From contig CALUQN010000002.1 of the NCBI GenBank assembly GCA_944322945.1, positions 1 to 64,000 on the forward strand: 64,000 nucleotides of DNA, written 5' to 3'. The DNA is from Candidatus Gastranaerophilales bacterium. Its GTDB lineage: Bacteria > Cyanobacteriota > Vampirovibrionia > Gastranaerophilales > Gastranaerophilaceae. Positions 52,299-53,245 of this stretch are shown here, piece after piece (position 1 is the stretch's first letter; every line of letters starts with the position of its first letter). Made by a program: the position numbers and the translations under genes. The notes beneath the pieces were generated by a model, which did not search any database, was not told the origin of the DNA, and worked only from the letters and a program-made list of their open reading frames with translations.

Positions 52299-52300
52299 AT

Positions 52301-52382
52301 TGTCGATGGGGGGACTTGAACCCCCAAGGATTTCTCCACACGCCCCTCAAACGTGCGCGTATACCGATTCCGCCACATCGAC
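52301..52382 (-). tRNA. tRNA-Leu (anticodon GAG)
   Basis: 82 nt on the minus strand with no encoded CCA. Acceptor GTCGATG (52382-52376) pairs with CATCGAC (52308-52302). The D arm contains TGGCGGAATCGGTATACGCG. The anticodon stem CACGT/GCGTG closes the loop TTGAGGG with anticodon GAG. A short variable arm (type II) and TTCAAGT T loop follow. A terminator lies just downstream. Confidence 0.9.
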
Positions 52383-52511
52383 ATAAATTTTTATTAAATT
52401 TTCACTGTTTTGATTAACCGTTCGTGGCGGATGTACTCGCTTTGCTCGTACCCTCCATTTTTTTGATACTCAATCAAAAAAACGGAGTCCTTGCCACATC
52501 GACTTGTCAAA
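52372..52511. repeat. tRNA-head hairpin repeat, copy 1
   Basis: Begins in the tRNA-Leu 5' end and runs to another copy of the tRNA 5' end (GCCACATCGAC, 52493-52503). Inside is a hairpin whose arms are GTGGC (52424-52428) and GCCAC (52493-52497), with a nested GTACTCGCTTTGCTCGTAC dyad. Nearly identical to 52612-52750, exactly 240 bases away; the copies differ by one A in an A-run. Confidence 0.85.
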
Positions 52512-52546
52512 AAATATTAAATTGTCACATAACTGAAAGTCCGTTT

Positions 52547-52622
52547 GTGGCGGAAAAGCTTCGCTTCCTCTCCTCGGACGTGACATTTAGTCACCTCCTC
52601 GTCGGCAGAGTGCCACATCGAC
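52547..52622. repeat. tRNA-head hairpin repeat, variant middle unit
   Basis: Same frame of GTGGC (52547-52551) and GCCACATCGAC (52612-52622) but a different interior, including GTGAC-ATTTA-GTCAC. The retained ends and replaced middle set it apart from the flanking copies. Confidence 0.75.
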
Positions 52623-52750
52623 ATAAATTTTTATTAAATTTTCACTGTTTTGATTAACCGTTCGTGGCGGATGTACTCGCTTTGCTCGTACCCTCCATTT
52701 TTTTGATACTCAATCAAAAAACGGAGTCCTTGCCACATCGACTTGTCAAA
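52612..52750. repeat. tRNA-head hairpin repeat, copy 2
   Basis: Near-exact repeat of 52372-52511, starting and ending in the 11-base tRNA-Leu 5'-end sequence. It lies farther upstream of the tRNA in the tRNA's own orientation. Confidence 0.85.
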
Positions 52751-52839
52751 TTATTTAATCGTTACTCAAAAATCCTAACATAAAAATTTTTTACTGTAAA
52801 TACTAAATTTCAGAAACTTATATAATAAATTCCTCAAAT

Positions 52840-53245
52840 ACTATAAAATCCCGTCATTCTGAGGGCTTTTGCCCGAAGAATCCCAATAAAAAGAGATTCT
52901 TCACCCCTGAATTGTCACCGGGTTCAGAATGACGAGGTATTAAAGACATTAGGACTATAGGACAATAAGACGTTAAGTTCATTTCATCAATCTGTCACCC
53001 TGAACTTGTTTAAACCTCCTTCCCCGGCTTGGGGAAGCAAATTCAAGACAGGCTGGGATGGGGAGCAACAGGTCCAGCCATCGTAAAGTCCTGCGTTGGC
53101 TTTTCACACGGTAAGATCCTGAACTTGTTTGACTACTTTTTCCAAAATCTTTGATTTTGTGAAAAATGTCCGGTTTCCCGCAGGGTCTTGCCGGTGGTAA
53201 GATTCCGAAACACGGAGGTCAATCCAACGTTCGGAATGACATTAT
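52840..53245. repeat. Intergenic mosaic of palindromic repeats
   Basis: Contains an 'attctgagggcttttgcccg' unit near 52857, 'gattcttcacccctgaattg' near 52892, 'cctccttccccggcttgggg' near 53015, and a 'gcaagatcctgaac'-like unit near 53110. No gene. Confidence 0.75.

What the first reader, a model, noticed from the sequence alone, without database searches (positions are those of the whole stretch)
52301..52750. Array of truncated tRNA-Leu heads, each fused to a hairpin
The first 11 bases of tRNA-Leu (GTCGATGTGGC) recur three more times upstream of the intact tRNA, and each copy is followed by a hairpin closed by GTGGC/GCCAC. Two units are near-identical 138-bp direct repeats at a 240-base period. 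The middle unit keeps the ends but has a different interior. This is not a plain tRNA duplication. It may be a small tRNA-targeting mobile element, a cassette-exchange site, or tRNA-like decoys processed by RNase P.
Basis: seen in the sequence. Interest (0 to 1): 0.6.

Follow-up and report, generated by a model that had tools for sequence, protein, structure and literature searches.

The report
Repeated self-folding tRNA-end copies
In one order of gut bacteria (Gastranaerophilales), many tRNA genes, and sometimes 5S rRNA, are flanked by tandem partial copies of their own ends, each carrying a structured hairpin that also moves between genes; the pattern fits no repeat family that I know of or could test.

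Summary
Three units lie between a promoter and tRNA-Leu(GAG). Each has the tRNA's first 11 nt, a hairpin insert closed by GTGGC/GCCAC, and a spacer with a boxA-like motif. The middle unit carries a different insert (type A) from its neighbours (type B).

It is not local. The type A hairpin occurs in 170 of 192 genomes of the order, in none of the ~160 phylum genomes outside it, and in no viral contig. Beside tRNAs the sequence left of the hairpin is the adjacent tRNA's own end (11.3 of 12 nt; 7.3 for other tRNAs). Copies sit at 5' ends in sense and at 3' ends in antisense; 5S rRNA ends are hit too. Many units also hold antisense of their own tRNA's D- or T-arm, so they fold back. Other inserts occur, and identical hairpins sit at different tRNAs in one genome.

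Best reading: gene-end copies made by fold-back or template-switch duplication, joined by small mobile hairpin cassettes, tolerated because the intact gene is kept. Mobiliser unknown: one draft genome with at least 32 copies shows neither Y1/RAYT transposase nor reverse transcriptase. Mechanism and function are inferred; anatomy, cognate origin, hairpin sharing and lineage restriction are computed.

The parts
52300..52383 (-). intact tRNA-Leu(GAG)
   Evidence: ARAGORN and Rfam RF00005
52384..52503 (-). unit 1 (next to the tRNA): head + type B hairpin + spacer
   Evidence: repeats and fold; pattern
52493..52503 (-). copy of tRNA head GTCGATGTGGC, unit 1
52452..52492 (-). type B hairpin insert of unit 1
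   Evidence: covariance model R2, E 1.5e-14; the model was built from sequences that include this one
52424..52451 (-). third stem and closing arm (CCGCCAC) of unit 1
   Evidence: fold; pattern
52392..52405 (-). boxA-like motif GTGAAAATTTAATA in the spacer next to the tRNA
   Evidence: the same motif lies in two 16S leaders
52504..52622 (-). unit 2 (middle): head + type A hairpin + spacer
52612..52622 (-). copy of tRNA head, unit 2
52567..52611 (-). type A hairpin insert ACTCTGCCGA..GAGAGG of unit 2
   Evidence: covariance model R1, E 1.0e-12; the model was built from sequences that include this one
52515..52528 (-). boxA-like motif GTGACAATTTAATA of unit 2
   Evidence: read from the sequence
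52623..52742 (-). unit 3 (far end): head + type B hairpin + spacer
52732..52742 (-). copy of tRNA head, unit 3
52692..52731 (-). type B hairpin insert of unit 3
   Evidence: covariance model R2, E 6.4e-14
52632..52645 (-). boxA-like motif of unit 3
   Evidence: identical copy of the unit 1 spacer
52772..52800 (-). promoter-like site TTTACA-N17-TAGGAT (TG before the second hexamer), upstream of the whole array
   Evidence: 2 sites found, 1.6 expected by chance; conserved in congener G002

Best explanation
The array consists of self-complementary partial copies of the end of the adjacent tRNA gene. Each copy carries a hairpin cassette that also occurs elsewhere in the genome. Most likely mechanism: at the hairpin-prone ends of structured RNA genes, replication switches template or folds back. 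This leaves a tandem copy of the leader plus gene end, often with an antisense copy of the D- or T-arm. Small structured hairpins (types A and B here, others elsewhere) move as units into hairpin loops, and persist only where the intact gene is kept to the right of the insert. Units then multiply and are lost by slippage or unequal exchange. At 5' ends the arrays stay in the transcribed leader and, by inference, are read through with boxA-dependent antitermination. Shown by computation: anatomy, cognate origin, sharing of hairpins between loci, unit-number differences, lineage restriction. Inferred: the fold-back step, the enzyme that moves the hairpin, read-through, and near-neutral effect.
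For: Cognate origin: for 122 units next to a tRNA, the 12 nt left of the hairpin match that tRNA at 11.31/12 against 7.27 for other tRNAs. Entry points cluster after tRNA nt 11-12 (66 of 104) or 17-20 (19) at 5' ends, and 10-14 nt from the 3' end. Antisense blocks to the own tRNA (longest exact match, own / other tRNAs): 11.7 / 6.2 nt in 20 non-A/B 5' units, 9.9 / 6.3 in 15 A/B 3' units, 7.6 / 5.9 in 90 A/B 5' units. Movement: identical hairpins at tRNA-Lys 3' end and tRNA-Met 5' end in G005, near-identical ones at Pro, Met and Leu in G125; at least 95% identity in 15.6% of same-genome different-tRNA pairs against 4.7% between genomes. Exact tandem of two hairpins without a gap in L192. The hairpin stem covaries: 89.8% of cells paired, 77.5% in shuffles, at most 54% when slid. 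Turnover: G002 has one unit at this tRNA, the window three; tRNA-Val has 1 and 5 units in G002 and G003. Duplication joints at TTGA(C), shared by tRNA-Lys and boxA, read from L127 and L167. 5S rRNA ends carry such units. All-tRNA counts: 7/41 and 12/33 5' ends in two family genomes, 1/42 and 0/34 in outgroups.
Against: No intermediate, excision product or new insertion was observed; everything comes from static draft genomes. The antisense arm is weak or missing in many type A/B units (P1 duplex better than with other heads in only 71 of 104). The type A stem is held by covariation with invariant bases, which suggests selection for binding to something rather than mere debris. The boxA-bearing leader and the regular architecture could also mean an RNA-level role.
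Confidence: 0.48

Rival explanations
1. A true miniature mobile element moved in trans by a dedicated enzyme (a Y1/RAYT-like, tyrosine-recombinase or RNA-guided system) that recognises the conserved hairpin and targets structured RNA gene ends, regenerating the gene as tRNA-targeting integrases do.
For: Hairpins shared across loci in one genome; precise unit boundaries and gapless tandem copies; strand-specific orientation with the intact gene always on the right; RAYT-like Y1 genes exist in this genome. The sense-left, antisense-right layout of some units resembles, from memory, the target loops of IS110 bridge RNAs.
Against: Many genomes with arrays have no Y1 match, and G023 with at least 32 hits has neither Y1 nor RVT_1; of the RAYT loci inspected only one had a type A hairpin within the ~3 kb fetched. 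No unit longer than ~250 bp and no cargo gene was seen. The flanks of the hairpin show no fixed target motif.
Confidence: 0.27
2. An RNA-level leader element: the units are co-transcribed with the tRNA, fold as three-way junctions, and regulate transcription or processing of the tRNA (with boxA and Nus factors, RNase III or RNase P), or act as decoys.
For: Array between promoter and tRNA. boxA-like motif in 67% of array leaders and 36% of other tRNA leaders against 1% of shuffles, and in 16S leaders of two order members. Covarying type A stem with invariant unpaired bases, k-turn-like by eye.
Against: The same hairpins sit in antisense at tRNA 3' ends and at 5S ends and in dispersed repeats without tRNAs. 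Unit number varies between congeners and most tRNAs have none. No Rfam match beyond tRNA in the window array; only sub-threshold matches in the other arrays scanned.
Confidence: 0.2
3. Ordinary tandem duplication of the tRNA 5' region with divergence, without any special element.
For: Direct repeats with a shared spacer; duplication joints at short shared sequence (TTGAC) in L127 and L167.
Against: Different conserved inserts at the same position in one array, the same inserts at unrelated tRNAs, and restriction to one order.
Confidence: 0.05

Closest known systems
REP / REPIN elements with RAYT transposases
   Same: Short, high-copy, hairpin-forming repeats that spread within a genome; stems keep pairing (PMC3116915, PMC3733652).
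   Different: No constant GTAG tag (GTAG directly follows the hairpin in 24/108 5' units, 8/21 3' units, 17/77 others). RAYT genes absent from many array genomes. Copies sit at structured RNA gene ends and carry the neighbour's own sequence.
Small dispersed repeats (SDR) of cyanobacteria (Elhai 2008, cited in PMC3116915; paper itself not held)
   Same: Very small mobile repeats in the same phylum; from memory, some lie in structured RNA genes.
   Different: Could not be compared directly; gene-end partial copies and arrays are not part of SDRs as I recall them.
tRNA-targeting integrative elements
   Same: Insertion at a tRNA end with the functional gene kept on one side, sometimes tandem.
   Different: Units of about 85-250 bp without cargo or integrase; both ends of the gene are used; entry 10-20 nt inside the gene.
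boxA antitermination leaders (rRNA, suhB; PMC5725501)
   Same: boxA-like motif in the array spacers and in two 16S leaders of the order.
   Different: Here it is repeated once per unit in tRNA leaders; function untested.

Membership tests
REP/REPIN | constant GTAG (or CGTC) tag at the hairpin foot | tested here: not met
   GTAG directly right of the hairpin in 24/108, 8/21 and 17/77 copies; no fixed left tag
REP/REPIN | associated RAYT (Y1) gene | tested here: not met
   PF01797 found in 21 of 59 relatives, missing from several with many copies; at 14 Y1 loci only one had a type A hairpin in the ~3 kb fetched
REP/REPIN | dispersed palindromic hairpin with compensatory changes | tested here: met
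   about 24 of 45 own-genome hits away from tRNAs; covariation
Cyanobacterial SDR | sequence match to published SDR families | not testable with these tools
   paper not held
tRNA-targeting integrative element | functional gene regenerated at one junction | tested here: met
   intact tRNA on the right of every tRNA-linked array of this genome that does not end at a contig end
tRNA-targeting integrative element | integrase and cargo | tested here: not met
   units of about 85-250 bp; no gene inside any array read in full
Integron cassette array | attC core RYYYAAC/GTTRRRY and integron integrase | tested here: inconclusive
   type A ends ACTCTGCC/GAGAG lack the core; integrase not searched
Reverse-transcriptase-dependent element | RT present wherever copies are active | tested here: not met
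   PF00078 absent from G104, G107, G117, G008, G023, all rich in copies; genomes are drafts
Known structured RNA family (including T-box) | Rfam match above the gathering score | tested here: not met
   only tRNA reached its gathering score in the arrays
boxA leader | motif shared with the rRNA leader of the lineage | tested here: met
   TTGAAAATTGAATA and TTGAAAATTCAATA in 16S leaders L273, L274; Nus binding not testable

The most novel reading that the evidence does not exclude
A structure-guided mobile system: an unknown enzyme or RNA recognises the conserved hairpin and inserts it about one helical turn inside the ends of folded RNA genes (tRNA D- and T-arms, 5S), copying a sense and an antisense piece of the target each time, so that each unit is programmed by the gene it sits next to.
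Probability: 0.2. Interest if true: 0.88.

Novelty: categorically new. Interest (0 to 1): 0.7.

Why it matters
If right, an entire order of common gut bacteria carries, next to its most conserved genes, a family of self-folding gene-end copies that no known repeat class explains. It offers a natural system to study how hairpins are copied and moved in bacterial genomes, and how tRNA transcription copes with structured, multiplied leaders. It may also be a practical reason why drafts of these genomes often break beside tRNA genes.

Tried and rejected
Rfam at gathering and permissive thresholds: only tRNA (and 5S at the 5S loci) passed gathering; weaker matches were taken as chance. Y1/RAYT and RVT_1 as mobilisers: no match with array presence. 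Virus origin: no exact match to the type A pattern in 2.9 million viral contigs. Strict RNA-leader role: weakened by antisense 3' arrays and dispersed copies. A universal antisense closing stem: only moderate for type A/B units. One script run had a bug at contig edges and was repeated. Literature searches found no description of such arrays, but the held library is incomplete.

Full report
What is there. The window's tRNA-Leu(GAG) lies on the minus strand at 52300-52383. Upstream of it in tRNA sense come three units of 119-121 bp. Each starts with the tRNA's first 11 nt and continues with a hairpin closed by GTGGC/GCCAC. Two units carry one insert (type B, AAGGACTCCG..GGAGG). The middle one carries another (type A, ACTCTGCCGA..GAGAGG). 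Each spacer holds a boxA-like motif. A promoter-like site TTTACA-N17-TAGGAT lies upstream of the whole array. It is conserved in congener G002, where only one unit stands between it and the tRNA. So the array probably lies inside the transcribed leader (inferred).

How far it reaches. Covariance models of the two inserts find 39 type A and 10 type B matches in this genome at E up to 1. Two of the type B matches are the same hairpins read on the other strand and two others are weak. Of the 45 matches mapped, 21 lie within about 320 bp of a tRNA, and the tRNA is on the same side of the insert except for arrays cut by contig ends. Type A occurs in 170 of 192 genomes of the order. In a phylum-wide draw every match fell in the order, and about 160 genomes outside it gave none. 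Named genome contigs carrying it are almost all Candidatus Gastranaerophilales or uncultured gut bacteria. Viral contigs give none.

Anatomy of a unit. In 122 units directly beside a tRNA, the 12 nt left of the insert match that tRNA at 11.31 positions, against 7.27 for other tRNAs. At 5' ends the insert enters after nt 11-12 (66 of 104), 17-20 (19) or 6-8 (13). At 3' ends it reads antisense and enters 10-14 nt from the end. Because the acceptor stem is base-paired, both ends present the same acceptor-strand sequence to the insert. To the right of the insert comes more of the same tRNA (best 9-mer 7.99 against 6.63 for 5' units). Many units then carry an antisense copy of the tRNA's own D- or T-arm. 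This is strongest in units with other inserts: longest exact match 11.7 nt against 6.2 for other tRNAs, 95% of 20 units at 8 nt or more. It is weaker in type A/B 5' units (7.6 against 5.9). Examples such as tRNA-Gly in L319 read GCGGAAGTAGCTCAGTTG, insert, GGCTCTACCAACTGAG, AAATAA, CCGC.

An unbiased count. For all tRNAs recovered from four genomes, I counted ends with an outside copy of their own first 11 nt. This genome: 7 of 41 5' ends and 6 of 40 3' ends. G088 of the same family: 12 of 33 and 6 of 33. A member of another family of the order: 1 of 42 and 3 of 42. A genome of the same class: 0 of 34 and 3 of 34. Some copies may be explained by neighbouring similar tRNAs. 5S rRNA ends carry the same kind of unit (L238 with two units, L189).

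The type A hairpin. Its unit is 44 nt, and two copies can stand back to back without a gap. Among 105 distinct 44-nt versions, 89.8% of the paired cells are standard pairs, against 77.5% in shuffles and at most 54% when slid. The foot ACTCTGCCGA/GAGAG, with a GA on either side of the inner stem, was required by the search pattern in part, but it is also invariant in the 23 sequences aligned first. It resembles a k-turn by eye; that was not tested. Within one genome, identical or near-identical versions sit at different tRNAs and at opposite ends, which indicates movement or copying between loci. Away from tRNAs it sits in other hairpin-forming repeats. The window holds related repeats that have something else at that place: GTCATTCTGAG-GGCTTTTGCC-CGAAGAATC near 52854, and TTTTTCCAAAATCTTTGATTTTGTGAAAAATG near 53138.

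Transcription context. The boxA-like motif is present (score 11 or more) in 67% of array leaders, 36% of other tRNA leaders and 1% of shuffles. It also lies in the 16S leaders of two members of the order. So it is a leader feature of the lineage that is repeated with the units. Read-through by an antitermination complex is inferred.

How it most likely works. The duplication joints in tRNA-Lys arrays L127 and L167 fall at TTGA(C), shared by the tRNA and the boxA, as in microhomology-mediated duplication. Together with the antisense arms this fits fold-back or template-switch copying at hairpin-prone gene ends, plus movement of small hairpins into loops. No mobiliser is identified: Y1/RAYT and RVT_1 genes are missing from several copy-rich genomes, and Y1 loci are not flanked by the hairpin apart from one nearby copy. 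The enzyme-driven and RNA-regulatory rivals stay open, at about 0.27 and 0.2.

Known or new. The hairpin part works like REP/REPIN or SDR repeats, but it fails the tag test and the RAYT test. The array part, made of sense and antisense pieces of the neighbouring RNA gene, matches no class that I could name or find in the held literature. I therefore rate it categorically new, with the caveat that the library is partial and the genomes are drafts.

Limits. All data are draft assemblies, many arrays end at contig ends, and E-values from the short-calibrated models are rough. The loci were chosen because they hold the hairpin, so only one search gives unbiased frequencies. No expression data were available.

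Noticed in passing
L273 (1390), L274 (minus strand, 1289 and 1362): boxA-like motifs TTGAAAATTGAATA / TTGAAAATTCAATA in 16S rRNA leaders; the same motif is common in tRNA leaders of this lineage.
   Followed up: partly
window 52853-52943 and 53000-53240: Dispersed REP-like inverted repeats next to the array; versions elsewhere in the genome carry the type A hairpin at the same place.
   Followed up: partly
L134, L142, L165, L198, L210, L243, L265 (tRNA 3' ends): Another recurrent insert at tRNA 3' ends, around CTTGCTC..CGCGTTAAACG, in units of about 170-210 bp.
   Followed up: no
L050, L131, L133, L174, L175, L178, L235: A further hairpin module GGC.AAGTCAGAAGCGAAGCTTCTGCGTGCCGTAT next to type A/B hairpins, sometimes nested.
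   Followed up: no
G000:C20:4420-4791 and G000:C6:12642-12983: Two RAYT-like Y1 transposase genes in this genome without the hairpin nearby.
   Followed up: yes
L150: A contig labelled Muribaculaceae carries a tRNA-Met array of this kind; probably a misplaced Gastranaerophilales contig.
   Followed up: no
many loci, e.g. L003, L045, L046, L058: Draft contigs often end inside or close to these arrays, so copy numbers from drafts are likely too low.
   Followed up: no
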